DNA of 64,000 nucleotides from an uncultured Oscillospiraceae bacterium. GTDB lineage: Bacteria; Bacillota; Clostridia; Oscillospirales; Oscillospiraceae. The notes beneath the pieces are model-generated. The model ran no database searches, had not been told where the DNA came from, and saw nothing but the letters and a program-made list of their open reading frames with translations. Within the stretch, counting starts at the first letter, position 1; the number at the start of each line of letters is the position of its first letter. The stretch is taken from assembly GCA_934597345.1 (NCBI GenBank), contig CAKTRJ010000007.1, forward strand, positions 1-64,000, written 5' to 3'. Shown here in pieces: positions 29,554 through 41,389 of this stretch. Made by a program: the position numbers and the translations under genes.

Positions 29554-30139
29554 TCACTGTTCCGGTGACGCCGGGAACTGCCGGCCCGTGTGGTCGATGG
29601 TGTAGTCCCCCGTCAGGATCAGCTGGCTGATGGGCACCACGGTGTAGCCCTCGTTGATAAGATACTCCAGAATACGCGGCAGTGCCTCCGGCGTGTGGAG
29701 GGCCGCATTGTGGAACAGCACGATGCTCCCCGGCTGTACCTTGGACGTCACTCGCTGGTAGATGGTATCGGCATCGTAGTCCTTCCAGTCCAGGGAGTCC
29801 ACATCCCACTGGATGGGCTCCATGCCCAGTGAGCGCACGGCGGAGATCACATGGTCGTCATACTCGCCGTAAGGACAGCGGATCAACGTGGGGCAGCAGC
29901 CGGTAACGGCCTTGATCTTATCACAGCTGGTCTGAATATCCGCCACGATCTGTGAGGTGCTCAGGCTGTTGTAATGGTCGTGATGGGTGGAATGGCTCAT
30001 AACCTCATGGCCCGCGTCGTGGAGCGCCTTTACCGATTCCGGGTATTTATCCACCCAGTCCCCTACCACGAAAAAGGTGGTTTTCACGTTATACTTCGCC
30101 AGAATATCAATGAGATGCTGGGTATCCTCGTTGCCCCAC
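29554..30139 (-). pseudogene. 3' part of a PdaB-type polysaccharide deacetylase split by the 11-kb element
   Basis: This is the C-terminal 194 codons of a NodB/CE4 deacetylase, starting at the Trp of the FDAAW motif and reading WGNEDTQHLIDILAKYNV, TTFFVVGDWVDKYPESV, GHEVMSHSTHH with metal His residues, RCPYGEYD and SIVLFHNAALHTPEAL. The 5' part is at 41189-41389 on the same strand. The frame is open right up to the element end and stops being deacetylase there. In Firmicutes this SFDAAWGNED subtype is annotated as sporulation protein PdaB; activity while split is not expected. Confidence 0.9.
30136..30139. repeat. Direct repeat CCAC at the left element junction
   Basis: CCAC here and at 41189-41192 flank the element. 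On the coding strand it is the end of an Ala codon plus the Trp codon of the deacetylase, so one copy restores the gene. The match extends to CCCCAC if the last two element bases at the right are counted. Confidence 0.85.
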
Positions 30140-30160
30140 GGTGATGGTAAAGTGCGGCAG
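30140..30160 (+). repeat. Left terminal inverted repeat / attachment half-site
   Basis: It reads inward GGTGATGGTAAAG then TGCGGCAG. It differs at two positions from the inward-reading right end (41188-41168). Confidence 0.88.
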
Positions 30161-30171
30161 TTTATTGCCGC

Positions 30172-31371
30172 TCACCACGTTTCCGCCAGCAGGAAATCCT
30201 GAAGATGCACGATTTTGATACCGTTTTCAATACCAACATCCATGTCGTTCAGGGTAACAACGTATTTGGGGTAGTGGTCTTTGATCTCCATGAGGTTGCC
30301 CACCTCGCGGTCAGAGCCCTCCGGAAGCTGGACACAAACCTGCACATAGATCCGTTCGTCGCGGCGGGTGGCAACAAAGTCGATCTCCCTGGTATCATTC
30401 TTGCCGATATACACATCGTACCCCCGGCGCTTCAATTCCAGGAACACGATGTTCTCCATTGCTCCGTCCAGCATCTTGCGGTTATAGCCCAGCAGGGCGT
30501 ATTTCAGCGACACATCCGCAAGGTAGTATTTCTCCTGGGTTTTCAGGATGCTCTTGCCCTGCAAGTCATAGCGTTCGCAGGGATAGATGATGAACGCCTG
30601 CTCCAGCCAGCGCAGATAGTTGTAGATACTCTCCACCGAGACCTTGCGGTGCTCGCTTTTCAGAAATGTAGAGATGGAGTTGGCAGAGAAGGTCTTGCCT
30701 ACGTTCTCGATAATGAATTTCACCACGCGATCAAAAAGATCCTGCTTGTTGATGCGGTGGCGCTTCACGATGTCGCGGGAGACCACGGTATGATAGATAC
30801 CGTTGACGATCTGATAGGCATTCTGCGCGTCATATTCACTCAGCGCGATTATGGGGAACCCACCGAAGCGGATATATTCCTCCAACAATTCTTTTCGTGT
30901 CAGAGTGCTGTCGGCTTTGAAATCTAGGTACTCGCGGAAAGACAGGGGATAGACGGGGATAGACACATAGCGTCCCGTCAGGTAGGTGGAGATCTCGCTG
31001 GACATGAGCTTGGAGTTAGAGCCCGTCACATAGATGTCGGCGTCAGAGCCTTCCAACAGACTGTTGACCGCCTTTTCCCAGCCGATGATCTCCTGTATCT
31101 CATCCAGCAGGAGGTAGCAGTGTCCCTTACCCGCCATAGTTTCCACCAACTCGTCATACATTTGCTTAGCGGTGATATTTTCGGGGATATCCATCTCCGT
31201 GTACCGCTTGCAGATAATATGATCCGCAGGTACGCCCCGCCGCCGCAGCTCCTCCTCCAGCATTTCAAAAATGGTGGACTTACCGCAGCGGCGGATGCCC
31301 GCCAGTATCTTGACCAGCGGCTGGTCGATAAAAGGCGTGATGGCCTCGATATAATTCGGTCTGTTGATCAC
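30172..31371 (-). CDS. AAA ATPase with DUF4143 C-terminal domain
   Basis: The 399-residue protein has Walker A GIRRCGKST (about 26-34), Walker B CYLLLDEIQE and the sensor-like VTGSNSKLMSSE in an AAA_14 domain. A helical linker follows, then a DUF4143 domain with a PD-(D/E)XK-like tail ELKRRGYDVYIGKNDTREIDFVA. These proteins are common and mobile in anaerobes; their target is unknown. Start is GTG 31371 behind AAGGAGG. The stop codon is only 12 bases from the left end repeat. The gene looks AT-richer than its neighbours. Confidence 0.9.
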   Translation of the reverse strand: MINRPNYIEAITPFIDQPLVKILAGIRRCGKSTIFEMLEEELRRRGVPADHIICKRYTEMDIPENITAKQMYDELVETMAGKGHCYLLLDEIQEIIGWEKAVNSLLEGSDADIYVTGSNSKLMSSEISTYLTGRYVSIPVYPLSFREYLDFKADSTLTRKELLEEYIRFGGFPIIALSEYDAQNAYQIVNGIYHTVVSRDIVKRHRINKQDLFDRVVKFIIENVGKTFSANSISTFLKSEHRKVSVESIYNYLRWLEQAFIIYPCERYDLQGKSILKTQEKYYLADVSLKYALLGYNRKMLDGAMENIVFLELKRRGYDVYIGKNDTREIDFVATRRDERIYVQVCVQLPEGSDREVGNLMEIKDHYPKYVVTLNDMDVGIENGIKIVHLQDFLLAETW

Positions 31372-31394
31372 GTTATCGCCTCCTTACCGTCATT

Positions 31395-31423
31395 AGTATA
31401 CCCAAAATGCTTTCGATATGCAA
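31395..31423 (-). promoter_or_regulatory. Sigma-A promoter of the ATPase gene
   Basis: On the minus strand TTGCAT (31423-31418) and TATACT (31400-31395) are 17 bases apart, 24 bases before the GTG start. Confidence 0.7.
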
Positions 31424-31501
31424 CAAGTTTTTCTTGTCTAACCTTGAAAACCATTCAATTTTCAGATTTTTTTGGTTCCACTTATATAGAGCGCCACATT
31501 G

Positions 31502-33052
31502 CTATCCTTCCAGCAGCGTCCGATAGGACTCCGAAAACAGATAGTCGATCTCAATTCGGTTTCCCTCATAGACACGTATCTCACGGATGGCGGCGGCCAC
31601 TGTGGGACGATCCAGCTCCGTCAGATGACCCAGAGCCAACAGCTCCTTCACCCACGGCAGAGACAGAGGGCCGTCCTGCGCTGTGCTGTGCAGCTTGTCC
31701 AACTGGGCTTGCAGCGCCTGTTCCTGCGCGTCATAGTCGGCGCGGTAGCGCAGATAATCCTCCTTGGAGATCAACGCATCCTGATAGTCTTCGTAGGCGC
31801 TCTGGCGGCGGCGCTGAATGCGCTGCAGGGCAGCCTCCAGCTTTTGGGGTTGGTCGGCGCCTGAGTGCGGGCACTTTGCCGCGCCCTGCTGCGCCAGCTG
31901 GTGGAGATTTTCCACGCCAGCAATGAGTTGGTTCAAATCATCCAGTATTACCTTCGTCAACACATCGTGGGCGATATAATGCTTGCTGCACACGGACGCG
32001 CCGTAGCGCTTGTATGAACCGCAGGTATAGAAAATTTTGCCGCCCCAGGTGGTCTTGACCATGGCTCGTCCACAGTCACCACACTTGAGAAAGCCCGCAA
32101 AGGGGCTGATGTTCTGCCGGAAATCCGGTGTGCGGGCGTTGGTATTCAACATGGCCTGTACCCGCTGCCACTGGTCTTTTTCGATGATCGGCTGGTGGGT
32201 GCCGGATACCACCGTCCACTGGGAGCGCTCCTTCCGCTTTGCTTTCCCGTGCATCTGGAGGCGGTCATCCCGTCCCTGCTCCATGTTGCCTCTGTACATC
32301 TCGTTTTGCAGGATACGGTGGATGGTGGCATATGTCCAGTAGGTGGTAGCCTCCAGCCGGTGGTTGTTGCGATATTTTTCTCCGGTGAGCCGCTTGTACT
32401 CACTGGGGCAGGGGATTCCCTCCTCGTTCAGCTGCTTGGCAATACGGATCTTGCCCATTCCGTTTTCAAACAGGGTAAAGATGCGCCGCACCACCTCCGC
32501 CGCAGGCGGGTCGATGACCAGACGGTTATGATTCTGCGGGTCCTTGCAGTACCCGTAGCTGGCGAAGGCCCCGATGAACTCGCCCCGCTGCTGCTTGGCA
32601 TGGAGGGAGCTTTTGACCTTCCGGGAGATGTCCTGGGCATACTGGGTGTTGAACAGGTTCTTCAGCGGCATCATCATGTCGTAGGCGCCGCGGTCGCTGT
32701 CGATATTGTCCGTAACGGCGATGAACCGCACGCCGTGCTCCGGCAGCCAGCGCTCCAGATAGCGGCCTGTTTCTATGTAGTCACGGCCGAAACGGGACAG
32801 ATCCTTTACCAGCACACAGCGGATGCGCCCACTTTTCATGTCCCGCAGCATCCGCTGAAAGGCAGGACGCTGGAAATTCGTGCCGGTATAGCCGTCGTCG
32901 GCATAGCACTCCGCCGCGGTCAACTCCGGATGGTTTTCAATATACTCCTCCAGCAGCTTCCGCTGGTTGCCGATGGAATCACTCTCCACCCGGTCTCCGT
33001 CCTCCCGGGACAGGCGGCAGTACAGCGCGGTGGGCAGTAGTCGCTTCTCCAT
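31502..33052 (-). CDS. Large serine recombinase (integrase/excisionase of the element)
   Basis: The 516-residue protein has the resolvase catalytic domain with ALYCRLSREDGD (catalytic Ser15), DDGYTGTNFQRPAF, VKDLSRFGRDYIETGRYLE and SDRGAYDMMMPLKNLFN. The Recombinase domain (about 160-280) follows with PPAAEVVRRIFTLFENGMGKIRIA. A zinc beta-ribbon (GFLKCGDCGRAM to TCGSYKRYG-ASVC) and a coiled coil (about 395-450) complete the architecture. All catalytic residues appear present. It is of the TnpX/TndX type. It is preceded by a small ORF and its own promoter. Confidence 0.95.
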   Translation of the reverse strand: MEKRLLPTALYCRLSREDGDRVESDSIGNQRKLLEEYIENHPELTAAECYADDGYTGTNFQRPAFQRMLRDMKSGRIRCVLVKDLSRFGRDYIETGRYLERWLPEHGVRFIAVTDNIDSDRGAYDMMMPLKNLFNTQYAQDISRKVKSSLHAKQQRGEFIGAFASYGYCKDPQNHNRLVIDPPAAEVVRRIFTLFENGMGKIRIAKQLNEEGIPCPSEYKRLTGEKYRNNHRLEATTYWTYATIHRILQNEMYRGNMEQGRDDRLQMHGKAKRKERSQWTVVSGTHQPIIEKDQWQRVQAMLNTNARTPDFRQNISPFAGFLKCGDCGRAMVKTTWGGKIFYTCGSYKRYGASVCSKHYIAHDVLTKVILDDLNQLIAGVENLHQLAQQGAAKCPHSGADQPQKLEAALQRIQRRRQSAYEDYQDALISKEDYLRYRADYDAQEQALQAQLDKLHSTAQDGPLSLPWVKELLALGHLTELDRPTVAAAIREIRVYEGNRIEIDYLFSESYRTLLEG

Positions 33053-33085
33053 AAGCCCCTCCTCTCCGTGGACTGTCCGCAGGTA

Positions 33086-33205
33086 TCAGGCCGTCTGCAT
33101 ATGGGCGCGGATCAATTCCAGCAGCAGCGTCTCCGCTGTCTGCTGGCCGACAAAATGTCGGATAACCGTGATGGCCGGGTCGGGCGCTTGCTTTGCGGTC
33201 GGCAT
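33086..33205 (-). CDS. 39-residue protein just upstream of the serine recombinase
   Basis: ATG 33205 (or 33208) follows AGAGGAGG. The product MPTAKQAPDPAITVIRHFVG continues to LLELIRAHMQTA and ends 33 bases before the recombinase start. Small helical partners of this kind often precede serine recombinases in clostridial elements; a role as accessory or directionality factor is possible but unproven. The frame stays open upstream to an ATG at 33424, which would give 112 residues. Confidence 0.6.
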   Translation of the reverse strand: MPTAKQAPDPAITVIRHFVGQQTAETLLLELIRAHMQTA

Positions 33206-33620
33206 CATAAGACCTCCTCTTTGGGAATACTCCATCGTATGCGCACTGCGGAGACCGTATGTTTGGCAGTTGGACAAAGGGCAGGCCGCTTTCCAGAAAT
33301 GGGCATGAAAAAAGCAGCGTACCGCCCCTTCGTCCTCTACATGCGGAGAGTGGGCCCGCTGCAATTCATAGCCGGTGCAGTCTTTCTGACTCGCGCCGCG
33401 GAGCTTCCGCTCCTCGTCGGACATCTTACCTTCTCACAGGATACAGCCCTGCAATGGCGGATTTCTCCCAGCGGCTTTTCCGCCGCCTCAGATGCCTTCT
33501 TGCGCACACAGTGTCCTTCACGCGGGGTTTATCCCCATTTCACTTGACCGCTGCCTGACCCCTTGCGGAATCGCTGCGGCATACGGTCACACCGGCTCAA
33601 AAACATATTTTATTGTGTTT
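33206..33620. other. Leader of the recombinase transcript, no firm gene
   Basis: This 415-base stretch lies between the recombinase promoter and the small ORF. The only candidate is a minus-strand in-frame extension of the 39-residue gene starting at ATG 33424 behind AGAAGG. I see no family motif in it, and the other open frames are short and poorly initiated. Confidence 0.5.
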
Positions 33621-33649
33621 ATTATAGTGTTCACGCCATACAAAGTCAA
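33621..33649 (-). promoter_or_regulatory. Sigma-A promoter of the recombinase transcript
   Basis: On the minus strand TTGACT (33649-33644) and a perfect TATAAT (33626-33621) are 17 bases apart. Confidence 0.8.
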
Positions 33650-33677
33650 GTCTCACAGCACTTTGATCGCATGCAAA

Positions 33678-33703
33678 AAAGCGTTGGCAAAAGCCAACGC
33701 TTT
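33678..33703 (-). terminator. Terminator after the structured RNA leader
   Basis: The 11-bp stem AAAGCGTTGGC / GCCAACGCTTT around AAAA has six T residues on the minus strand. It lies between the RNA element (33766-33883) and the recombinase promoter, where a riboswitch terminator would be. Confidence 0.88.
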
Positions 33704-33765
33704 CTTCTTAGTATCGCGGTAAGGCTTCCGTCATGCGCTGCGGCATTGGCACTTTGCATTCGTGA

Positions 33766-33883
33766 TGTTCCCGGCGTGATCTGACTTATCTTCCATCTCG
33801 GAAGCCTCACTGTGACCTGCTCGCGGGGCCTCGGACCCCATTCCACTTTTATCGCGGCGCCATGGCGCTTTGAACCGGAAACA
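33766..33883 (-). ncRNA. Structured leader RNA, cobalamin-riboswitch-like
   Basis: On the minus strand a closing helix (33883-33875 with 33774-33766, nine pairs with one G-U) encloses several hairpins. They include GGGGTC/GGCCCC with a CGA loop and CTTCC/GGAAG. Segments ATAAAAGTGGAAT, GGTCACAGTGA and GAAGATAAGTCAGATCACGCC-like residues recall parts of the cobalamin riboswitch core (AAAAGGGAA, CCACTGTGA, AAGTCAGGANACCTGCC), but not perfectly. The bases at 33807-33799 are exactly complementary to 33730-33722 downstream, a possible switching helix, followed by a terminator. It has its own promoter. No regulated gene follows except the recombinase unit. Confidence 0.5.
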
Positions 33884-33909
33884 TAATTCACTTATCGGAA
33901 GCTACATCC

Positions 33910-33938
33910 ATAGTAACCACATTTTTCCATTTTTGCAA
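33910..33938 (-). promoter_or_regulatory. Promoter driving the structured RNA leader
   Basis: On the minus strand TTGCAA (33938-33933) and TACTAT (33915-33910) are 17 bases apart, about 27 bases before the closing helix. Confidence 0.6.
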
Positions 33939-33973
33939 TAGGAAATTTTTGGAAAATTTATCTAGAAGGAGCC

Positions 33974-34030
33974 ATGTCAAAAGGGAACACTTCCAAAAAC
34001 GGCCAGAATACAGGCTTTGCAGGTTTTTAA
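33974..34030 (+). CDS. Possible 18-residue peptide gene MSKGNTSKNGQNTGFAGF
   Basis: AAGGAG is two bases before the ATG, closer than usual, and an 18-codon frame ends at TAA exactly where a terminator begins. The peptide is polar, rich in Gly, Asn, Ser and Lys. It could be a real small gene, a gene remnant or chance. Confidence 0.35.
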   Translation: MSKGNTSKNGQNTGFAGF

Positions 34031-34053
34031 CATGACTGCTCCTCATGTTTTTT
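34029..34053 (+). terminator. Terminator after the short ORF
   Basis: AACATGA / TCATGTT arms with a seven-base loop run into five or six T residues. Confidence 0.7.
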
Positions 34054-34078
34054 ACACCAAAGATGATGGACAGACGAC

Positions 34079-34963
34079 TTATTTATCCCCGTTTTCCGCC
34101 ACCCATGTCCGCACATAGTCCACGAAAAGCCGGGTGGAGTTGGACAGGGCCTTCTCGTCCTTCACGCCGATGCCGATGGTGCGGTGGAAGGTCATGGGCG
34201 GACGGCAGGCGGTGATGGGCGCGGGACTGTGGCGCACCATCAGCTCCGGCAGCAGGCTGATGCCCAGCCCCTCCGACACCATGGACAGAATCGTCCGGTC
34301 CTCCCGCGCCACATACTTCACGTTGGGCCGGATGCCCATCTCGTCAAAGGCCGCCATGATCTCATAGTCGTCGCCCTCCTCCAGCTGGATAAAGGGCTCC
34401 GACGCCAGCAACTCCCTGGGGAAGGGGTCGCTGTGGGCATAGGGATGGTCGCAGGGCGCGATGACCTGCAATTCGTCCCGGTGCAGGGCATAGGTCTGCA
34501 AACGTTTCACCGACGGCAGCCGCAGGAAGCCGCAGTCCACTGCGCCGGTGACGATCCAGTTTTCGATCTGGTCGTAGAAATCGCCGGTGACCACCTCGAA
34601 CTCAATGTTGGGGTACAGCTTACCGAAACTTTTCAGGATGCGGGGCAGCCATTGAGCCGACACGCTGGAAAAGGTAGCGATCTTCACAAGGCCGCTGTCC
34701 ATGTCCTTCAAGCCCTCCACCGTCTGCATCAGGGCGTGGTGGGCGGCGCACAGCTTCTCGATCTTGGGCAGCACCGCCCGGCCATCCGCCGTCAGCACCA
34801 CGCCGCCCCGGTTGCGGCTGAGCAGCGTGACGCCCAGTTCGCTCTCCAGCGACGTGATGGCGTGGCTGATGCCGGACTGGGTGAAGTTCAGCGCCTCCGC
34901 CGCCTTGGTAAACGTGCCGCAGGACACCACCTTCAAAAACACCTGATATTTGGAAATGCTCAT
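34079..34963 (-). CDS. LysR-family transcriptional regulator
   Basis: The 294-residue protein has an N-terminal winged HTH (FLKVVSCGTFTKAAEALNFT, QSGISHAITSLESELGV) and a periplasmic-binding-like effector domain of normal length. It is complete. ATG 34963 follows GAGGTGG; an upstream in-frame start overlaps the promoter. It diverges from the zinc-ribbon gene at 35099, which is the likeliest neighbour to be controlled, though a distant target is possible. Confidence 0.92.
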   Translation of the reverse strand: MSISKYQVFLKVVSCGTFTKAAEALNFTQSGISHAITSLESELGVTLLSRNRGGVVLTADGRAVLPKIEKLCAAHHALMQTVEGLKDMDSGLVKIATFSSVSAQWLPRILKSFGKLYPNIEFEVVTGDFYDQIENWIVTGAVDCGFLRLPSVKRLQTYALHRDELQVIAPCDHPYAHSDPFPRELLASEPFIQLEEGDDYEIMAAFDEMGIRPNVKYVAREDRTILSMVSEGLGISLLPELMVRHSPAPITACRPPMTFHRTIGIGVKDEKALSNSTRLFVDYVRTWVAENGDK

Positions 34964-34994
34964 GAGAACCACCTCGCTGTTGTCGATAGGCTCA

Positions 34995-35024
34995 TTATAC
35001 ATGACGACCACTCATGAAATCAAT
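34995..35024 (-). promoter_or_regulatory. Promoter of the LysR gene
   Basis: On the minus strand TTGATT (35024-35019) and a perfect TATAAT (35000-34995) are 18 bases apart. Confidence 0.7.
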
Positions 35025-35037
35025 AGCAAAGATGCGT

Positions 35038-35066
35038 TTTACAAATGCGGATTTCCGTGCTATTCT
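35038..35066 (+). promoter_or_regulatory. Promoter of the zinc-ribbon gene
   Basis: TTTACA (35038-35043) and TATTCT (35061-35066) are 17 bases apart and back to back with the LysR promoter, so LysR could cover both. Confidence 0.65.
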
Positions 35067-35098
35067 ATGTACAGCTTACGAAACGGAGGACAGGAAAC

Positions 35099-35317
35099 AT
35101 GGCCGCGCCTGCAAAAACCATTCGCTGTGCCCTGTGCGGCAGCAGCAATGTGGTGTACCGGAGCGGACGCTACTATTGCGTCTCCTGCGGTGTCAAGGGC
35201 GACCATCCCATGTCCGACGCGGAGTTGGCCAACATCGCCCAGGCCCTTTCACTGGGTGATGACAGCGCGGAGCTGGCGGCACTGCGACGCCGTTACCCCC
35301 GGCTGAGAGTCAGATAA
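35099..35317 (+). CDS. Small zinc-ribbon protein
   Basis: The 72-residue protein has two CxxC pairs, CALCGSSNVVYRSGRYYCVSCG cut here into CALC and CVSC, forming a zinc ribbon at residues 9-30, and a helical C terminus. GGAGG precedes ATG 35099. Function unknown; it may bind nucleic acid. A terminator follows. Confidence 0.75.
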   Translation: MAAPAKTIRCALCGSSNVVYRSGRYYCVSCGVKGDHPMSDAELANIAQALSLGDDSAELAALRRRYPRLRVR

Positions 35318-35371
35318 ATCCCCCTATCTGTACCCAATCTTTTCCATAATGAGGGTATCCTCCCCTCGGAT

Positions 35372-35411
35372 CGCACCCGGTCACACCGCCCTGTGGCCGG
35401 GTGCGGTTTTT
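35372..35411 (+). terminator. Terminator after the zinc-ribbon gene
   Basis: CGCACCCGG (35372-35380) / CCGGGTGCG (35397-35405) with an inner CACA/TGTG stem is followed by six T residues. Confidence 0.9.
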
Positions 35412-35424
35412 TGACATGATAAAA

Positions 35425-35446
35425 GGGACAGCCGGCCGGCTGTCCC
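35425..35446 (-). terminator. Terminator of the gene at 35454
   Basis: A perfect 22-base palindrome (11-bp arms) is preceded by AAAA, giving T residues on the minus strand. Confidence 0.75.
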
Positions 35447-35453
35447 TCATGTT

Positions 35454-35756
35454 TTATTTCGCCACCGGCGCGTCGGGCCAGTAGATCACATAGCATTCCT
35501 GCATCTCGCCCATGAAGAAGAAAATATTCTCCCCCATCTCGATATGCTGGCCAAAGGCCAGATCCGGCACGAAAAGCCGTCCGCTGGTGCGCTTGGGCCC
35601 CTTGATGGTGAAGCCCTCCGCCGTGGGATGCTGCCGCAGCGCATTGGCGGCCTCCTCCAGACCGGGGAAGTGCAGTGTTTTTTCCAGCTCGGCCAGCTGT
35701 GTCTCGCCGTTGATGTAAATGAGATTGTTCTCGTCCTTGAACCAGTTGATACGCAT
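35454..35756 (-). CDS. Hypothetical 100-residue protein
   Basis: I do not recognise a family. It is soluble, with INWFKDENNLIYINGETQ at the start, a helical middle (GLEEAANALRQHPTAEGF) and an acidic-aromatic end (GENIFFFMGEMQECYVIYWP). CAGGAGG precedes ATG 35756, and a terminator follows, so it is a real single-gene unit. Confidence 0.65.
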   Translation of the reverse strand: MRINWFKDENNLIYINGETQLAELEKTLHFPGLEEAANALRQHPTAEGFTIKGPKRTSGRLFVPDLAFGQHIEMGENIFFFMGEMQECYVIYWPDAPVAK

Positions 35757-35834
35757 GGTATATGCCTCCTGTCGCAGTGCTATAACCACATTATAGATAA
35801 GCCCGCCGCGCCGGTCAAGGGTTTTATCGGCTTC

Positions 35835-36461
35835 TCACGCTTTCACTTCGCGGATGCTCTCCTGCAAACGCCGCAGGAACCGCCCGGCATGAGCGCCGTC
35901 CATCTGGGTATGGTGGAACTGGAAGGAGATCGTCAGCGTCGTTCGGAAAAGCTCCCTGCGATACCTGCCCCAGATGAGGAAGGGGTTGTTGAAAATTCCG
36001 CTGTTCATGCCTACCGCACCGTCGATCTCCGTGTCCACGATGGCGGAGGTGCCGATGACCATGTGCTCCGTCAGGTCATGGTTTTCGCAGCGCTCCGCCG
36101 TCTGCCGCGTCAGGCGCAGATAGTCGGCATTGAACTGGGCAAGATCGGCAGAAAAGGACACATCGCAGGAGCTGACCTCACCCGTCCTGTTCTTCACGAT
36201 GGTATTCACCGCGATGGCGTCGTATTGCAGCAGCTCCCGCCCCACGGGAAGCGTATAGAATTCCCGGATACCGCTGGCCGCCCTGCCGATGCACCAGCAC
36301 AGCAGCATATTGAATTTATAGCCGCGCCTGCGGCTGAGCCGGACAAGAGGCGTCACGTCCAGCGTCTTGAAAAACGTCACCATGGGGTTGGGCGCGTCCA
36401 TCCAGAGATCAAACGCCGCGCCGCGGCTGGTGGCTTTGGGGTCAACTGTGACCGGTCTCAT
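35835..36461 (-). CDS. Chloramphenicol acetyltransferase-like (CatA family) enzyme
   Basis: The 208-residue protein has the CAT fold pattern: FDLWMDAPNPMVTFFKTLDVTPLV at the N terminus, YKFNMLLCWCIGRA, and the catalytic histidine in SFQFHHTQMDGAHAGRFL. The HHxxxDG site is intact. CatA enzymes use acetyl-CoA to inactivate chloramphenicol, but many short CAT-like proteins act on other substrates. It heads the downstream leftward set; 15 bases separate it from the upstream hydrolase, so they share a transcript with the TetR gene. Confidence 0.85.
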   Translation of the reverse strand: MRPVTVDPKATSRGAAFDLWMDAPNPMVTFFKTLDVTPLVRLSRRRGYKFNMLLCWCIGRAASGIREFYTLPVGRELLQYDAIAVNTIVKNRTGEVSSCDVSFSADLAQFNADYLRLTRQTAERCENHDLTEHMVIGTSAIVDTEIDGAVGMNSGIFNNPFLIWGRYRRELFRTTLTISFQFHHTQMDGAHAGRFLRRLQESIREVKA

Positions 36462-36476
36462 AAGTGTTTCTCCTTT

Positions 36477-37109
36477 TTACAGAATGGTCTTTGCGGGCTC
36501 TGCCCTCCCGGTACGGGCGCTTATGATCCAATCATCCAAAAACCGCATCTGCTCCGCCGTGTGGAACCAATGCTCGCCGTCCGACATGACTGTCAGCGCC
36601 GCGCCGGTCTTTTCCGCAAAGGCCGATATGGTCTCTATGGAGGTCAGGCCGTCGTGCTCTCCGTACAGAATACGGGTGGGGATGCGCCACGAAACGGGGT
36701 GCGCCCGCACATAAAGGAGATATTCCCACGACAGCGTTTCACCGAAGGCCGTGGGGATCTCCCGCTTTTCCGCAAGCTCTGCTTCGGTCACGTTCGCCCA
36801 CCGCATCATATTGCCAATCAGTGTTTCCATGTCCACCACCGGAGAGATGAAATACGCCCTGTCCACCAGCGTCTCATCCAGTGCGGACAGGGCAAAAAAC
36901 GCGCCGATGCTGTTGGCGATCAGCGTAAGGGAGCGGCAGCGCTGCCGCTGCTCCGCGAAGAACGCCGGAAATTCCTCCGCGGCCTCCCAGGGCGTCCGGG
37001 CGCGGTAATCGAAGCCAATGACTTCACTGTCCGGAAACAGGGGCTGATAATGTTCGGCTTCCTCCGCCGAGCCGCCCTTCCCGTGAACGTATACGATCAG
37101 ATTTTTCAT
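36477..37109 (-). CDS. Alpha/beta hydrolase
   Basis: The 210-residue protein has the oxyanion-region YVHGKGGS (7-14), nucleophile elbow LIANSIGAFF (63-72, Ser67), an acid in RILYGEHDGLT and the late His in DGEHWFH, so the triad is complete. It is similar to small serine hydrolases of the YdeN/RBBP9 kind. AAAGGA precedes ATG 37109, six bases after the membrane protein. Confidence 0.85.
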   Translation of the reverse strand: MKNLIVYVHGKGGSAEEAEHYQPLFPDSEVIGFDYRARTPWEAAEEFPAFFAEQRQRCRSLTLIANSIGAFFALSALDETLVDRAYFISPVVDMETLIGNMMRWANVTEAELAEKREIPTAFGETLSWEYLLYVRAHPVSWRIPTRILYGEHDGLTSIETISAFAEKTGAALTVMSDGEHWFHTAEQMRFLDDWIISARTGRAEPAKTIL

Positions 37110-37114
37110 CTGTT

Positions 37115-37579
37115 TTATCCTTTCTGAAACGATTGCAGCGACACCGTAATATGTGCCGCGCCGAAAATGATCATGAGGAGCACCGCCGGATAATTGTGCA
37201 GCCAGACGGCGGCGCACAGGTAATACAGCACCGGAAATACCGCCAGCGGCAGAGGGGCAAAAAGAAACGCCCGGCGCAGCAGCTCCGTTTTCCGCCCGCC
37301 CGCAAAATAGCGGAGCCAGACGGCGTAGTACAGCACCAGAAAACCGGCGGCCAGATACAGCCATACGCTGTGGAGCGCCAGCGGCCGGCGGCTCACCAGC
37401 AGCACTACAGTCAGCAAATACGCCATGCGGCTGACCTGCTCCACCACCTCCACCCAGTGGGTGACCGCCGCCTGCTCCGTCTTTTCCGCAGGCGGAAAGA
37501 GGACATAGGCAATATTGATCAGCATGGGCAGGGCGAAGATCACCAGCCCGGCCCATGAGAAGGACACCGTCAGGTTCAT
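37115..37579 (-). CDS. Small integral membrane protein
   Basis: The 154-residue protein has four or five TM helices (about 6-28, 48-66, 72-92, 105-140). I recognise no family; the pattern recalls uncharacterised membrane proteins cotranscribed with TetR regulators. It overlaps the TetR gene by four bases, so expression is coupled to it. Confidence 0.7.
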   Translation of the reverse strand: MNLTVSFSWAGLVIFALPMLINIAYVLFPPAEKTEQAAVTHWVEVVEQVSRMAYLLTVVLLVSRRPLALHSVWLYLAAGFLVLYYAVWLRYFAGGRKTELLRRAFLFAPLPLAVFPVLYYLCAAVWLHNYPAVLLMIIFGAAHITVSLQSFQKG

Positions 37580-38181
37580 AGCACAACACCCGCTTTCACA
37601 GCAAACGGCGGCAGTTTTGCGGGCTTTCCGTAAATGGCGATCAGTGCGCGGAACTCCCGCCGGAAGGTCTCGCGCAACTCCGCCTCTGTCAGGTGCAGAT
37701 GGTCGGTATTGGCCAGAATGGCCAGCCCATAGGAGAAATAGATCATGTCCTGATGGAAGCGGCGGGCCACCTCCTGGCTGTAACCGAATTCCTCCACGAT
37801 CACGTCGATGACCTCCGGCAGCAGCACATCGTTCTGATACGGCCCCAGCTGTTCCCCCTCCAGATAGAGCCAGCGGAAAAGCTGTTTTTCCTCCGCCGCG
37901 AATCTGACAAAGCCCATGCCATAGCTGCTGTAACGGCTGTCGTTCCCCTCATGGGCACGCAGCGAGTCCCGCACCCGTTGGGTATGCATCTCGATGGCGC
38001 GCTCTGTCAGCGCGGCCTTCAGCTCCTCCATGCTCTGAAAGGAGAGATAGATCGGCTGGGTGGAGCAGCCCAGTCTCCGGGCAACGCTGCGGGCGTTGAT
38101 GGCGGAAAAGCCGCCGTCACGCAGCACCTCGATGGCGGCATCAATGATCTTGTCTTTAGAAACCTTCTTTGCAGCAGGCAT
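37576..38181 (-). CDS. TetR-family repressor (autoregulated)
   Basis: The 201-residue protein has the TetR HTH AAIEVLRDGGFSAINARSVARRLGCSTQPIYLSF split over residues 16-49 and a helical ligand domain. ATG 38181 fits GAGGTG better than GTG 38190. A 12-bp inverted repeat covers its -10 region, so it very probably represses itself and the coupled membrane protein, hydrolase and CAT-like genes. Confidence 0.92.
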   Translation of the reverse strand: MPAAKKVSKDKIIDAAIEVLRDGGFSAINARSVARRLGCSTQPIYLSFQSMEELKAALTERAIEMHTQRVRDSLRAHEGNDSRYSSYGMGFVRFAAEEKQLFRWLYLEGEQLGPYQNDVLLPEVIDVIVEEFGYSQEVARRFHQDMIYFSYGLAILANTDHLHLTEAELRETFRREFRALIAIYGKPAKLPPFAVKAGVVL

Positions 38182-38197
38182 CGTATTCACCTCAACA

Positions 38198-38229
38198 ATA
38201 ACATGTTGTTATTCATAACAACATGTTAT
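38198..38229. promoter_or_regulatory. TetR operator
   Basis: ATAACATGTTGT (38198-38209) and ACAACATGTTAT (38218-38229) form a perfect inverted repeat with an eight-base centre, touching the -10 hexamer of the same promoter. Confidence 0.85.
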
Positions 38230-38256
38230 TATATGCCGTGAAAGCCGATTTGTCAA
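38228..38256 (-). promoter_or_regulatory. Consensus promoter of the TetR-membrane protein-hydrolase-CAT operon
   Basis: On the minus strand TTGACA (38256-38251) and TATAAT (38233-38228) are perfect and 17 bases apart. Confidence 0.92.
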
Positions 38257-38278
38257 GGGGTTTCTTTGGGCGGCAGGC

Positions 38279-38313
38279 AAAAAGCTGCGGGACTTGCCGT
38301 CCCACAGCTTTTT
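38279..38313. terminator. Bidirectional terminator beside the lipoprotein gene
   Basis: AAAAAGCTG...CAGCTTTTT outer arms and CGGGAC/GTCCC inner arms give A/T runs on both sides; it ends the leftward lipoprotein transcript. Confidence 0.85.
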
Positions 38314-38320
38314 CGTTTGC

Positions 38321-39148
38321 TTATCGCCGTCCGGCGGCCTGCATGATGGCCTCCACGGCATCCACCGGCTGGCTGCCCCAGGTGATCTCGGTACTCTCGC
38401 ACCCGGCGCTGTCCAGCAGCTCACGGGCCTGGTCGGTCAGCAGCTTCTGATAGGCGTCGTCCACCAGTTCCAGCTTTTGCAGGAACTCCGTCAGGTTGTC
38501 GGTTTTAGAGGACAGCCATGTGGTGGCGGCATCACTGATCTCATTGGCGCCAAGGCCGGTGTTCACGCCCCATTCGATCAGCCCGGCCGCCGCCTGCACC
38601 GCCGACAGGGAGGAACCGGAAGTCCCCACCTTCACCTCCTCGTCGATCTCGTCCAGAATGGGCAGCGTCAGCACCGGCGGCACATCGGCCGGGGCTCCGG
38701 CTGCATCAGAGGTGGAGCAGGTCACGCCGTCCGCGCCGATGGTCACATACAGCTTTTCCTGCGTCGCGTCATAAAGGAAGGTGCCCTCCCTCAGCAGCGT
38801 ATCATCCGCATCCAGCGCACCCACGGTAAAGAGGACGGAACAGTTATCCTTCCGGGAAAGCTCCACGATATCCTCGCCGGTGAAGATCCACTCCCCGCCC
38901 TTCAGGGGCGAACCGTCGGCGTTTTTGCACACCTTCGAGAAGCTGCCGCCGTGGATGTAGATGGAGCTGGCATCATCCCGTTCCAGCTTGACATACACGC
39001 CGTATTCCCCGGTCTCCGCCGGGATGTCTGCCCCGTTGGCCGAGGGTGTGTTGTCTTTTACTTCTGTCAGACGGGTGCAGCCCGTCATAAGGGCGGCCAG
39101 CAGCAGTATCGCCGCGGCCAGCAGCGTGATCTTTTTCATCTGTTTCAT
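38321..39148 (-). CDS. Predicted lipoprotein, function unknown
   Basis: The 275-residue protein has a lipoprotein signal with lipobox LMTGC (Cys24). A beta-rich section follows (YGVYVKLERDDASSIYIHGG, GEWIFTGEDIVELSRKDNCSVLFTVGALD), then a helical C terminus. I do not recognise a family. ATG 39148 is chosen from three close Met codons by spacing to AAAAGGAG. It lies downstream of DUF3795 and may share its transcript. Confidence 0.7.
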   Translation of the reverse strand: MKQMKKITLLAAAILLLAALMTGCTRLTEVKDNTPSANGADIPAETGEYGVYVKLERDDASSIYIHGGSFSKVCKNADGSPLKGGEWIFTGEDIVELSRKDNCSVLFTVGALDADDTLLREGTFLYDATQEKLYVTIGADGVTCSTSDAAGAPADVPPVLTLPILDEIDEEVKVGTSGSSLSAVQAAAGLIEWGVNTGLGANEISDAATTWLSSKTDNLTEFLQKLELVDDAYQKLLTDQARELLDSAGCESTEITWGSQPVDAVEAIMQAAGRR

Positions 39149-39173
39149 CATTTCTCCTTTTGCCTGTTTCGTT

Positions 39174-39530
39174 TTACTTCGTCTCCCGGAGCTGCTTCAG
39201 GTTTTCCAGTACGAACGGGTTGTTGGCGGCGATGCGCCCCAGCGTCGGACATCCATCCATCTCCGTGCAGTCGGCGCAGGTATCCAGCCCCTTCTCCCGG
39301 ACGCAGTTATGTACCGGACAGAGCTTGTCGCAGAAGGGCGTTTTCGCGCCCTCTATGCGGCAGCCGGTGCAGTTTATCATGTCCGGCGTGATGGTCACGC
39401 CGTTGAGCTTCGTCCACAGGGCGGCGGTTTTCTCCCGCAGGGCATCGTCGTTTGTGACGGTTGCGATCCTGGCGTCGCACGTTTCGCAGTCCAGTCCGCA
39501 GCAGCCGATCAGTTGGTTTGTGTATTTCAT
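39174..39530 (-). CDS. DUF3795 Cys-rich protein
   Basis: The 118-residue protein has the family-style cysteines CCGLDCETCDAR, NCTGCRIEG, CDKLCPVHNCV and CADCTEMDGCP, probably metal or iron-sulfur ligands. DUF3795 proteins are common in anaerobes and have no assigned role. ATG 39530 follows GGAGG; the longer open frame upstream is only a dispersed repeat. Confidence 0.85.
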   Translation of the reverse strand: MKYTNQLIGCCGLDCETCDARIATVTNDDALREKTAALWTKLNGVTITPDMINCTGCRIEGAKTPFCDKLCPVHNCVREKGLDTCADCTEMDGCPTLGRIAANNPFVLENLKQLRETK

Positions 39531-39594
39531 TGTTGCCTCCATGTTTTTATTACTTTGCCCACGCTTTTGTTTGCCGGCACACCTCCTGCAATAA

Positions 39595-39631
39595 GTAAAC
39601 GCGGCACAGGCCGTTTTTGTGGCATGCATCG
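39595..39631. repeat. Dispersed 37-bp hairpin repeat, copy A
   Basis: It starts GTAAACGC and contains TTTTTGTGGCATGCA. It matches copy B (40190-40226) at all but about four of the first 34 positions and lies just before DUF3795. It creates spurious 'MHATK' frame starts on the minus strand. Confidence 0.75.
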
Positions 39632-39649
39632 TATTTACGCGACCGGCGC

Positions 39650-40144
39650 TTATGCCCCCGTAACTTGGGAAAGCGTCACCACAGCGCCGCCCTTGCTCTC
39701 ATAATAGGCCAGCAGCTCCGGCAGCTTCTTTTTATCATAGCTGGTGATGCAGTCCGACAGCACATGGACGGTATAACCGGCTTTCCGCATATTATAGCAG
39801 GTGGATTTGACACAGGCCGCGGCATCCGCCCCGGCAAGATAAAAGTCGGTAATCCCCGTTTCCCCGATGAAAGCCGCAAATGCCTCGCTGGTCAGGGCAT
39901 TGCTCTTCGACTTCGTGAAGATATGGTCGGATACGACGTTCAGCTCCGGCACCAGCTCCGCGCCGCGGGTGCCGGGCTTGAAGGTTCTCGTCCACGCGGA
40001 CAGATTGTTGTGCTGAATGTAAACGATCCACAACTCCTTTTGGATGGCCCAGTCGATGGCCCTGTTGACGTTTTCAATAATTTCCTTGTAATTCTTCGTG
40101 ATGTCATTCTGAAGGTCGATCACGACCAATGCGCTGTTTTTCAT
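39650..40144 (-). CDS. Isochorismatase-family cysteine hydrolase
   Basis: The 164-residue protein has the catalytic triad pattern: Asp in VVIDLQND (about 5-12), Lys in HIFTKSKSNA and Cys in YLAGADAAACVKSTCYN. Family members include nicotinamidases, N-carbamoylsarcosine amidases and isochorismatases; the substrate is not evident. GGAGG precedes ATG 40144. Confidence 0.88.
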   Translation of the reverse strand: MKNSALVVIDLQNDITKNYKEIIENVNRAIDWAIQKELWIVYIQHNNLSAWTRTFKPGTRGAELVPELNVVSDHIFTKSKSNALTSEAFAAFIGETGITDFYLAGADAAACVKSTCYNMRKAGYTVHVLSDCITSYDKKKLPELLAYYESKGGAVVTLSQVTGA

Positions 40145-40189
40145 GCTGTGTTCCTCCATATTCTCCTTTTGTCTCGGTCTCCCCAAATA

Positions 40190-40226
40190 GTAAACGCAGT
40201 ACACGCCATTTTTGTGGCATGCACTG
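40190..40226. repeat. Dispersed 37-bp hairpin repeat, copy B
   Basis: It can fold with outer arms CGCAGT/ACTGCG and inner arms GCCA/TGGC. The same element precedes the neighbouring gene (copy A), in the same orientation. Confidence 0.75.
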
Positions 40227-40229
40227 CGT

Positions 40230-40418
40230 CTAAGCGTCTGGCATTTTGATTTCTTCTATTTTCCCGTCCCGGAAACGGATCACGCAGGTATATCTGCACT
40301 TGGGGCAGAAGAGAGGGAAATCCTCCAGCACCGTGTGCGGCCGTATCTGCGTTCTGGTCTTGCCGCCGCATTTAGGACAGCGCAGCCAATCCAGCTTCAA
40401 TGACATGCACTCAGTCAT
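40230..40418 (-). CDS. Cysteine-rich KTR domain protein
   Basis: The 62-residue protein has CPKCGGKTRTQIRPHTVLED cut by family pattern, then FCPKCRYTCVI, two zinc knuckles with the Lys-Thr-Arg motif of the KTR family found on many clostridial and Tn916-type elements. ATG 40418 overlaps the TetR stop by eight bases; ATG 40406 is an alternative. Translational coupling to TetR is likely. Confidence 0.88.
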   Translation of the reverse strand: MTECMSLKLDWLRCPKCGGKTRTQIRPHTVLEDFPLFCPKCRYTCVIRFRDGKIEEIKMPDA

Positions 40419-41052
40419 GGGACGTTACCTCGGTTCCCTGCCTCACCAGCGCACAAAAGGCCGCGTCCCGGTCAAAGATCCCCGCGGCAAAGCCGGGGAT
40501 CTCCCGGATGGACTTATAGATGCTGAGACTGAATCCCGTCAGGATCCGGCCGATCTCCTGATCGGAGTAGCCGCAGTCGCCGGTGACAATCAGTGTGGAC
40601 AGGCTGTGCACCACGAGCCACATATCCCGGAAATAGAGGTCAGCTTCCGCGGCGGTGATGTGATAAATGTCCATCAGCGTCGGGCGTACCAGCTGCTGCA
40701 AATGCCGCATGGAGTTCATGGCGCTGTACTCCTGCCCCCGGGTCAGGAACAGCAGCCGGTAAAGCTCCGGCTCCTCCCGGGCGAAGCGGATATAGCTCTT
40801 TCCAACACCAAGGAACGGGATCTTCTCTTTTAAGCCCGCACTGGTGTAGCTGTCATATACACGCACCGCAGCCCCGTAGACCTCCTGTCTGACGTCATCC
40901 ATGGAGCCGAATCCGGTAAAGATGGGCCGCGTGGAGGTGCCCAGCTCGTCGGCAATGGTCTTTGCCGTCAGGGCGTCGATCCCCCTGGCCCGCACCACAC
41001 GCAGCGCCGCCGCCACCATTTCTTCTCTTGTAAACTTATTCTTCGGCGCCAT
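40411..41052 (-). CDS. TetR-family regulator at the right end of the element
   Basis: The 213-residue protein has the HTH region VRARGIDALTAKTIADELG then STRPIFTGFGSMDDVRQE and a helical ligand domain with a TetR_C-like end. ATG 41052 follows AAAGGGGG; longer frames run back through the promoter. It is the first gene inside the right end repeat, transcribed inward, with a palindromic region by its promoter. Confidence 0.9.
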   Translation of the reverse strand: MAPKNKFTREEMVAAALRVVRARGIDALTAKTIADELGTSTRPIFTGFGSMDDVRQEVYGAAVRVYDSYTSAGLKEKIPFLGVGKSYIRFAREEPELYRLLFLTRGQEYSAMNSMRHLQQLVRPTLMDIYHITAAEADLYFRDMWLVVHSLSTLIVTGDCGYSDQEIGRILTGFSLSIYKSIREIPGFAAGIFDRDAAFCALVRQGTEVTSHD

Positions 41053-41080
41053 CGTTTTCCCCCTTTCGCCAAAATGCACT

Positions 41081-41112
41081 AAGCGATGCACATCGCATGA
41101 TGCGCATCGCTT
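41081..41112. promoter_or_regulatory. Palindromic operator region of the right-end TetR gene
   Basis: AAGCGATG (41081-41088) and CATCGCTT (41105-41112) are inverted; inside them GCGATGCACATCGC (41083-41096) is a second dyad. It starts directly after the -10 hexamer. Confidence 0.75.
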
Positions 41113-41141
41113 ATTATATGCAGACACAGTCCTCTTGTCAA
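41113..41141 (-). promoter_or_regulatory. Consensus promoter of the right-end TetR gene
   Basis: On the minus strand TTGACA (41141-41136) and TATAAT (41118-41113) are perfect and 17 bases apart, 27 bases inside the element end. Confidence 0.92.
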
Positions 41142-41167
41142 TAGGGAAATATCCGGCCCAAAAACGG

Positions 41168-41188
41168 CTGCCGCACTTTTCCCTCACC
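41168..41188 (-). repeat. Right terminal inverted repeat / attachment half-site
   Basis: Read inward on the minus strand it matches the left end (30140-30160) at 19 of 21 bases, including the shared AAAGTGCGGCAG. Confidence 0.88.
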
Positions 41189-41389
41189 CCACGCGGCGTC
41201 GAAGGAGATGCTGCACAGTTTATCCTTGCGTTCCACCGAATAGATCGGCAGCTGGCGCTGGGTGGCCGCCGCCGTGCGGGAGGCGGGATACAGTGTCACA
41301 TAGAAGATGCCCGCCGCCACCGCCAGCGTACACAGCACCGCCAGCACCCGCCGGTGCAGCAGGAAGATCCGCACCCGTTTCTCTTTCAT
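41189..41389 (-). pseudogene. 5' part of the split PdaB-type polysaccharide deacetylase
   Basis: ATG 41389 follows AAAGGACGGGG. The product has a basic start, one TM helix (about 15-36) and QLPIYSVERKDKLCSISFDA followed by AW, then runs into element sequence and stops soon after. It contains the catalytic-base Asp of motif 1. Joining codon 66 to the Trp codon at 30138 gives a continuous 260-residue deacetylase. Confidence 0.9.

What the first reader, a model, noticed from the sequence alone, without database searches (positions are those of the whole stretch)
29554..41389. Skin-like 11-kb element whose precise removal would restore a sporulation-type deacetylase gene
Seen: two same-strand parts of one PdaB-type deacetylase lie at 41389-41189 and 30139-29554. 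The DNA between them is bounded by 21-bp inverted repeats (19/21) and by CCAC on each side. Removing it with one CCAC rejoins Ala66 (GCG) to Trp67 (TGG) and gives an uninterrupted 260-codon gene with its catalytic Asp. A complete large serine recombinase is inside. Known: in spore-formers, serine-recombinase elements interrupt sporulation genes (sigK skin, spsM) and are excised in the mother cell. Inference: this may be another developmentally excised element, in a new target gene and with non-phage cargo. It may instead simply be an inactivating insertion.
Basis: partly seen in the sequence, partly recalled or inferred. Interest (0 to 1): 0.95.

Follow-up and report, generated by a model that had tools for sequence, protein, structure and literature searches.

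The report
Excisable element splitting spore gene pdaB
In a gut-type bacterium an 11-kb stretch of DNA that encodes its own recombinase splits a pdaB-type spore-wall gene; the same gene is split at the same codon in 30 other related genomes, and the DNA is likely cut out when the cell makes a spore, which would restore the gene.

Summary
The element spans 11,053 bp (30138-41191) between codons 66 and 67 of a pdaB-type deacetylase gene; the joined flanks read 260 codons. Its ends pair 19 of 22 bases around a central TG, as an attP does; the gene sides pair 5 of 22. It recurs: the same codon is split, with like arms, in 27 of 400 family genomes and in 3 outside that draw. A relative of this serine recombinase is in 24 of the 27 and in 4 of the other 373. 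Eleven complete elements (5-42 kb) share only the recombinase and, in 10 of 11, a small ORF just upstream, a predicted directionality factor. Eight genomes have the gene cut at a second codon too. No split piece listed has an internal stop. pdaB has a sigma-E-like upstream pattern in 39 of 85 sequences (shuffles 2.2); sigK is split in 3 of 13 genomes. Excision in the mother cell is the best explanation but was not seen: no rejoined gene, no free circle, and the circle search fits only half of the known ends. New variant of a known kind.

The parts
41189..41389 (-). 5' part of pdaB-type deacetylase gene, codons 1-67 (...SISFDAA, Trp67)
29554..30138 (-). 3' part of the same gene, WGNEDT... to stop (194 codons + stop), deacetylase domain
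30138..41191 (-). intervening element, 11,053 bp from central TG to central TG
41187..41193 (.). shared core CCCCACG (minus strand CGTGGGG), junction on the 5' part side
30134..30140 (.). shared core CCCCACG, junction on the 3' part side
41168..41189 (.). element-end arm (predicted attP half-site), 5' part side
   Evidence: 19 of 22 pair with the other arm
30139..30160 (.). element-end arm (predicted attP half-site), 3' part side
31502..33052 (-). large serine recombinase, 516 aa, predicted integrase/excisionase of the element
   Evidence: (phrog_95 integrase, E 9.9e-111)
33086..33205 (-). small ORF, 39 aa, directly upstream of the recombinase; predicted recombination directionality factor
30172..31371 (-). 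AAA_14/DUF4143 ATPase, shared with the element of L002
34079..41187 (-). variable cargo: LysR regulator, CAT-family protein, alpha/beta-hydrolase-like ORF, TetR regulators, DUF3795, isochorismatase, Cys-rich KTR

Best explanation
The window carries an 11,053-bp element, encoding its own large serine recombinase, inserted between codons 66 and 67 of a pdaB-type spore deacetylase gene, and it is likely excised in the sporulating mother cell, which would restore the gene. SHOWN by sequence: the junctions, the TG-centred palindromic element ends, the recombinase, open frames on both sides, and the same split at the same codon in 30 other genomes. INFERRED: the recombinase joined attP to an attB made of the codons for the conserved motif FDAA-WGNEDT, cutting at TG inside the Trp codon; neither half should work alone, because (family motifs recalled) the catalytic Asp lies on the 5' part and the metal-binding His motif on the 3' part. 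PREDICTED: in vegetative growth the split costs little, as the gene serves sporulation; in the mother cell the recombinase with the small upstream protein (directionality factor) recombines attL with attR, releases a circle and restores pdaB around the time sigma-E transcribes it. The forespore chromosome would keep the element, so the spore passes it on. pdaB would then be a safe harbour into which related recombinases bring diverse cargo.
For: Restorability: 260 codons. attP arms pair at 12-19 of 22 in the 10 complete elements (G088: 14), attB arms at 4-7 of 22. Same codon split in 7 of 80 loci, in 21 of 400 genomes by one pattern with 0 control hits, in 27 of 400 counting every junction read. 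Recombinase at E <= 1e-150 in 18 of the 21 pattern hits and 10 of the other 379 (Fisher p 2.2e-21), or 24 of 27 and 4 of 373 once six junctions read in recombinase-bearing genomes are added (p 2.6e-31). No internal stop in any pdaB piece listed. In 3 of 7 pairs compared, recombinase dS is close to pdaB dS (G201-G349 0.53/0.48, G047-G347 0.69/0.76, G003-G005 1.57/1.41), with pdaB dN/dS 0.21, 0.07, 0.09 (Fisher p 2.8e-8, 3.9e-17, 3.0e-18), as expected if the gene stays in use while split. In 20 of the 21 split genomes the intact-site pattern, which hits 192 of 400, finds nothing. Sigma-E-like pattern upstream of pdaB in 39 of 85 sequences, shuffled mean 2.2, maximum 7; in B. subtilis pdaB (spoVIE) is listed in a sporulation-mutant table as sigma-E regulon (PMC4703394, passage). 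Spo0A over cut-off in 12 of 13 genomes, 11 of the 12 split ones among them. sigK in two same-strand pieces in G086 and G008, with a serine-recombinase-like ORF beside the 3' piece, and on two contigs in G254, 3 of 13 genomes.
Against: No rejoined gene and no free circle was seen. The attP pattern hit 1 of 34 genomes, inside a chromosome contig, but it would fit only 5 of 10 known element ends, not the window's. No clear sigma-E-type enrichment upstream of the small ORF/recombinase: 2 of 26 against 0.7 expected. Some elements look recently mobile: G007/G008 element ends are 178 of 181 identical while pdaB dS is 0.65; in G006-G254 the recombinases are more diverged than the gene (0.84/0.51), in WIN-G002 less (0.53/0.88), and in two further pairs recombinase dS is saturated; low dN/dS there may predate insertion. 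The window's genome is not held; its nearest split relative G002 has no Spo0A over the cut-off, and G001/G002 show only fragments of sigK. The window's own pdaB upstream has no exact match to the promoter pattern. The small ORF was not found beside the G006 recombinase and only at E 0.13-0.18 in G313 and G140.
Confidence: 0.67

Rival explanations
1. Plain mobile island: the recombinase group simply targets a conserved codon run in pdaB, the insertion inactivates the gene, and hosts that sporulate rarely or not at all tolerate it; excision happens only for transfer.
For: Cargo is diverse and some insertions look recent. Diverse large serine recombinases that share one conserved coding target are known and need no developmental role (PMC10083194, passages). 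No rejoined form was seen. G002, the window's nearest split relative, lacks a Spo0A hit over the cut-off.
Against: No stops in any split piece listed; dN/dS 0.07-0.21 in the three pairs with matching divergence; genes in three open pieces; sigma-E-like pattern and sigK splits in the same family.
Confidence: 0.23
2. Reversible switch outside sporulation: the element leaves and re-enters in a fraction of vegetative cells and gives on/off variation of a wall deacetylase.
For: yin in yabG was found excised in cultures at all time points (PMC10747680, passage).
Against: Excision needs a small phage-encoded directionality factor (PMC6957869, passage); the gene looks sigma-E-controlled; no free circle in 34 genomes, though that pattern is half-sensitive and assemblies hide minorities.
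Confidence: 0.08
3. Assembly artefact or chance repeat.
For: No whole genome is held for the window, so its contig cannot be checked against another assembly.
Against: The same junction recurs in 30 other genomes, among them two single-contig genomes of 4.31 and 3.22 Mb.
Confidence: 0.01

Closest known systems
gin element in gerE, Bacillus cereus ATCC10987 (PMC5595907, passages)
   Same: island without phage genes, with serine recombinase, splitting a sporulation gene; short shared core; imperfect inverted repeat at the att sites; needs a second factor (GirX)
   Different: 28.6 kb, three recombinase genes, target gerE, rearrangement shown by experiment; here target pdaB, one recombinase in the window, excision not shown, many species
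skin in sigK; SPbeta in spsM; vfbin in spoVFB; vrin in spoVR; yin in yabG; phi3T in kamA
   Same: site-specific split of a sporulation gene by an element with its own integrase
   Different: described as prophages or prophage-like in the passages read, with other target genes
Site-specific large serine recombinases sharing one coding target (PMC10083194, passages: a prolyl isomerase; a magnesium chelatase/protease gene)
   Same: diverse recombinases, one conserved coding target site
   Different: no developmental restoration in the passages seen; the word deacetylase does not occur in its main text

Membership tests
Sporulation gene-intervening (skin-type) elements | splits a sporulation gene so that precise removal restores the frame | tested here: met
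   pdaB-type by best NCBIfam hit TIGR02764, below its curated cut-off, as are the intact relatives searched
Sporulation gene-intervening (skin-type) elements | encodes its own site-specific recombinase, with attL/attR | tested here: met
Sporulation gene-intervening (skin-type) elements | encodes a recombination directionality factor | tested here: inconclusive
   conserved small ORF beside the recombinase, function untested
Sporulation gene-intervening (skin-type) elements | excised as a circle in the mother cell during sporulation | not testable with these tools
   no cultures or reads; the attP search found no free circle in 34 genomes but fits 5 of 10 known ends
Sporulation gene-intervening (skin-type) elements | target gene expressed in the mother cell | tested here: inconclusive
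   sigma-E-like pattern upstream in 39 of 85 sequences, no exact match in the window
Sporulation gene-intervening (skin-type) elements | host makes endospores | tested here: inconclusive
   Spo0A over cut-off in 12 of 13 related genomes, not in G002; window genome not held
Large serine recombinase integrative elements | palindromic attP, less symmetric attB, shared central dinucleotide | tested here: met
   arms 12-19 of 22 versus 4-7 of 22 in 10 elements; TG at both ends in all 10, though the search patterns asked for TGGGG
Prophage | phage structural genes in the element | tested here: not met
   of 8 window ORFs scanned with PHROGs only the recombinase and a TetR-like ORF matched (the other ORFs were not scanned there); no viral contig matched the junction, attP or recombinase patterns

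The most novel reading that the evidence does not exclude
pdaB is a developmentally spliced gene across gut Oscillospiraceae: unrelated serine recombinases cut it at two fixed codons, so that in eight of the genomes seen the gene lies in three pieces and both elements must leave the mother-cell chromosome before a deacetylase can be made, in some beside a sigK that needs the same treatment. The sporulation gene then works as a shared safe harbour where islands of many kinds are carried at no vegetative cost and handed on through spores.
Probability: 0.5. Interest if true: 0.88.

Novelty: new variant of a known kind. Interest (0 to 1): 0.8.

Why it matters
The papers seen describe programmed removal of DNA from sporulation genes in Bacillus and clostridia, one element at a time. 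Here is a recurrent family: one spore-wall gene, one codon, 31 genomes counting the window, one recombinase group, varied cargo, and a second independent site. If excision is developmental, it shows how gut spore-formers can stockpile mobile cargo at little cost, supplies some two dozen natural recombinases with their sites and a candidate directionality factor, and gives a readout (rejoined pdaB) of sporulation from faecal metagenomes.

Tried and rejected
Prophage origin: no phage genes among the 8 window ORFs scanned with PHROGs; no viral contig matches the junction, the attP pattern or the recombinase peptides (these find close relatives only). Plasmid origin: the best-listed plasmid match to the recombinase is 35% identical, none of 41 records reaches 60%. 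Rejoined form in G194: an intact pdaB on C66 and a split junction on C95 looked like two states of one gene, but the sequences differ, so it is another gene or another organism in the bin. The second copy in G313 (C19) is a divergent paralogue (WGGEN). Vertical inheritance of all elements: rejected, since G007/G008 and G006/G254 do not fit. Sigma-E promoter of the recombinase operon: no clear support. G315 attP-like site at C2:164085-164112: not a free circle, it lies 4 kb past pdaB and near a second recombinase copy; unexplained. The strict junction pattern (9 of 400) was too narrow and was followed and by reading junctions. The 17-base 5'-junction pattern had 2 control hits in 24 genomes (0 in 12), so each hit was read. 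The first codon-distance run missed three genes through a search-pattern slip; redone. Recombinase tree: the rows I had marked as split need 8 label changes, partly because G095, G188 and G384, marked unknown there, were counted as split afterwards; several other branches are long.
Full report
WHAT IS THERE. The minus strand holds codons 1-66 of a pdaB-type polysaccharide deacetylase gene at 41389-41192 and Trp67 onward at 30138-29554. The 3' part scores PF01522 at E 1e-31 and, best among NCBIfam models, TIGR02764 pdaB at 186.8 bits, below that model's cut-off of 237.4; none of the 35 genomes searched with it passes the cut-off, intact copies included. Both edges share CCCCACG (+ strand). Counting from the TG of the Trp codon, the DNA between is 11,053 bp, and the joined flanks read 260 codons. 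The best relatives of the 3' part come from Oscillospiraceae-type genomes, many from gut and rumen.

ATTACHMENT SITES. Laid end to end, the element ends form a palindrome around TG with 19 of 22 paired bases; the two gene sides pair at 5 of 22. Over the 10 elements of that table attP arms pair at 12-19 of 22 and attB arms at 4-7 of 22. A symmetric attP is stated as general for phage serine recombinases in PMC5595907 (passage). The predicted cut lies in the Trp codon of the motif FDAA-WGNEDT; 73 of 80 loci carry the motif unbroken.

RECURRENCE. A scan of species-representative genomes gave 80 loci (the best 80 of 498 relatives); 7 of the 80 are split at exactly this codon with a like element end (L002, L005, L014, L015, L039, L048, L075). 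In 400 genomes of the family, drawn evenly, a strict junction pattern hit 9 with 0 reversed controls, a relaxed one 21 with 0 controls. Six more junctions were read in genomes that the recombinase search had pointed to (G088, G095, G188, G222, G347, G384), making 27 of 400: G003, G004, G007, G008, G047, G086, G088, G095, G140, G158, G188, G190, G194, G201, G208, G214, G222, G224, G254, G279, G313, G315, G347, G349, G362, G384, G393. In G004, G008, G140, G194, G201 and G222 only the 3' junction, and in G095, G188 and G384 only the 5' junction, was read with its arm. G002, G005 and G006 lie outside the 400, making 30. The intact-site pattern hits 192 of 400; of the 21 only G194 is in both lists. 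Both halves lie on one contig in 12 cases counting the window (11, G047 by coordinates); element length runs from 5.25 kb (G088) to about 57.6 kb (G047). G086 and G214 are single contigs of 4,308,696 and 3,224,506 bases.

RECOMBINASE. The window's recombinase is found at E <= 1e-150 in 28 of 400 genomes (at most three candidates were scored per genome). Of these 28, 24 have pdaB split at site 1; the others are G044 and G166 (site 1 whole, cut at site 2), G374 (whole) and G392 (no clear pdaB; 1.7 Mb). Three split genomes (G004, G007, G194) lack such a match; in G194 the recombinase is in pieces, in the other two the contigs holding the junction show no close recombinase. With the pattern hits alone, which do not depend on the recombinase, it is 18 of 21 against 10 of 379, Fisher p 2.2e-21. 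Identity of pdaB-linked recombinases to the window's is 51-67%, with G002 at 92%. The tree puts 11 other recombinases of the same genomes on one side of a branch with modest support, 47/91.

SHARED CORE AND CARGO. All-against-all comparison of ORFs in 11 elements found one gene family in all 11, the recombinase with its overlapping frames, and a small ORF directly upstream in 7 of 11 by BLAST. A profile of 15 such peptides finds it at E < 1e-4 in 10 of the 11 (G313 only at 0.13). Of 19 recombinase loci not used to build it, 16 match at E < 1e-3, two weakly (G140, G313 at 0.13-0.18) and one not at all (G006); none of 11 other recombinase loci and none of 13 loci with whole pdaB match at E <= 1. 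It is my candidate directionality factor; nothing tested it. Cargo differs: regulators, a CAT-family protein, isochorismatase and others in the window; TrkH/TrkA-like in L002 (read from ORFs); pilin-like in G158, transporter- and amidohydrolase-like in G208, ParA-like in G086 (read from ORF starts, no family search).

SECOND SITE. In G254, G208 and G349 the gene breaks off again after QWDV and resumes elsewhere at DSLDWK; G158, G166 and G224 show the same with both pieces on one contig, and piece borders say so for G190, G222 and G279; G044 shows the left side only. Eight genomes have both sites split (G158, G190, G208, G222, G224, G254, G279, G349). A different recombinase, 25-28% identical to the first, lies beyond the second site in G158, G224 and G349; none was found in the G166 and G044 stretches. 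G004 and G047 keep a complete 3' part and carry an extra 3' piece further on.

IS THE SPLIT GENE ALIVE? No stop lies inside any split piece listed, and the pieces read by eye run open to their junction or end. dN/dS of the 3' part: WIN-G002 0.030, G007-G008 0.022. These alone prove little, because elements move: G007/G008 share 178 of 181 element-end bases while pdaB dS is 0.65. Of seven pairs compared, three have a recombinase about as diverged as the gene: G201-G349, G047-G347, G003-G005, with pdaB dN/dS 0.21, 0.07, 0.09; WIN-G002 (0.53 versus 0.88) and G006-G254 (0.84 versus 0.51) do not match, and G214-G086 and G315-G313 are saturated. G001, with pdaB whole, is only dS 0.18 from split G002 in the 3' part, a natural empty site in a close relative; the 5' part of G002, on another contig, is far more distant (dS 0.93) and may be from another organism in the bin.

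HOST CONTEXT. Spo0A is over cut-off in 12 of 13 genomes, not in G002; the remaining split genomes were not searched for it. sigK is in two same-strand pieces in G086 (10.9 kb apart) and G008, each with a serine-recombinase-like ORF beside the 3' piece (read from sequence, no family search), and on two contigs in G254. Upstream of pdaB, ATA-N13-17-CATA occurs in 39 of 85 sequences, mostly intact genes (shuffled mean 2.2, most 7 in 100 single-base shuffles). The window has a near match by eye only. In B. subtilis SpoIIID binds upstream of ybaN (pdaB) (PMC517825, passage), and pdaB is given as sigma-E regulon (PMC4703394, passage).

LITERATURE. Split sporulation genes named in the passages read: sigK, spoVFB, spoVR, spsM, gerE, yabG, kamA. 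Searches for pdaB, ybaN, spoVIE or polysaccharide deacetylase with excision, recombinase, intervening element or prophage terms and for Oscillospiraceae with skin element listed no title or abstract on a split pdaB; one search listed 20 of 103 and 20 of 32 papers, and the library holds open-licence papers only.

VERDICT. An integrative element family that splits pdaB at a fixed codon is shown by sequence. That it leaves the mother-cell chromosome in sporulation is inferred, at about two in three; on checking I lowered this by a point, since the circle search fits only half of the known ends and four of seven pairs do not bear on the age argument.

Noticed in passing
G086 C1:1133702-1145261 (L237); G008 C19:22713-39295 (L238); G254 C17 and C44: sigK split skin-style in Oscillospiraceae genomes that also carry split pdaB, the first two with a serine-recombinase-like ORF beside the 3' piece.
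   Followed up: partly
G158, G224, G349, G208, G254, G166, G044 (L218, L231, L130, L110, L112, L222, L223): Second interruption site in pdaB at QWDV/DSLDWK; in three of them a different serine recombinase lies beyond it; three-piece genes.
   Followed up: partly
G004 C15 (L133) and G047 C42 (L232): Complete pdaB 3' part followed kilobases later by an extra copy of the gene's 3' end, as if an element at site 2 brought its own replacement end.
   Followed up: partly
G315 C2:164085-164112 (L236, L239): A perfect attP-like palindrome within a chromosome contig, 4 kb beyond split pdaB and near a second, 96% identical recombinase.
   Followed up: partly
G194 C95 (L114): A spo0A gene lies on the same 8.3-kb contig as a broken recombinase and the pdaB junction, so the element may carry a spo0A copy.
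   Followed up: no
G001 and G002 (relatives of the window): Only fragments of sigK were found, some with a stop, in the two genomes nearest to the window; sporulation may be failing in this lineage, or sigK may be split there too.
   Followed up: no
35835-36461: CAT-family (PF00302, E 9e-13) protein in the element cargo; weak match, function unknown.
   Followed up: no
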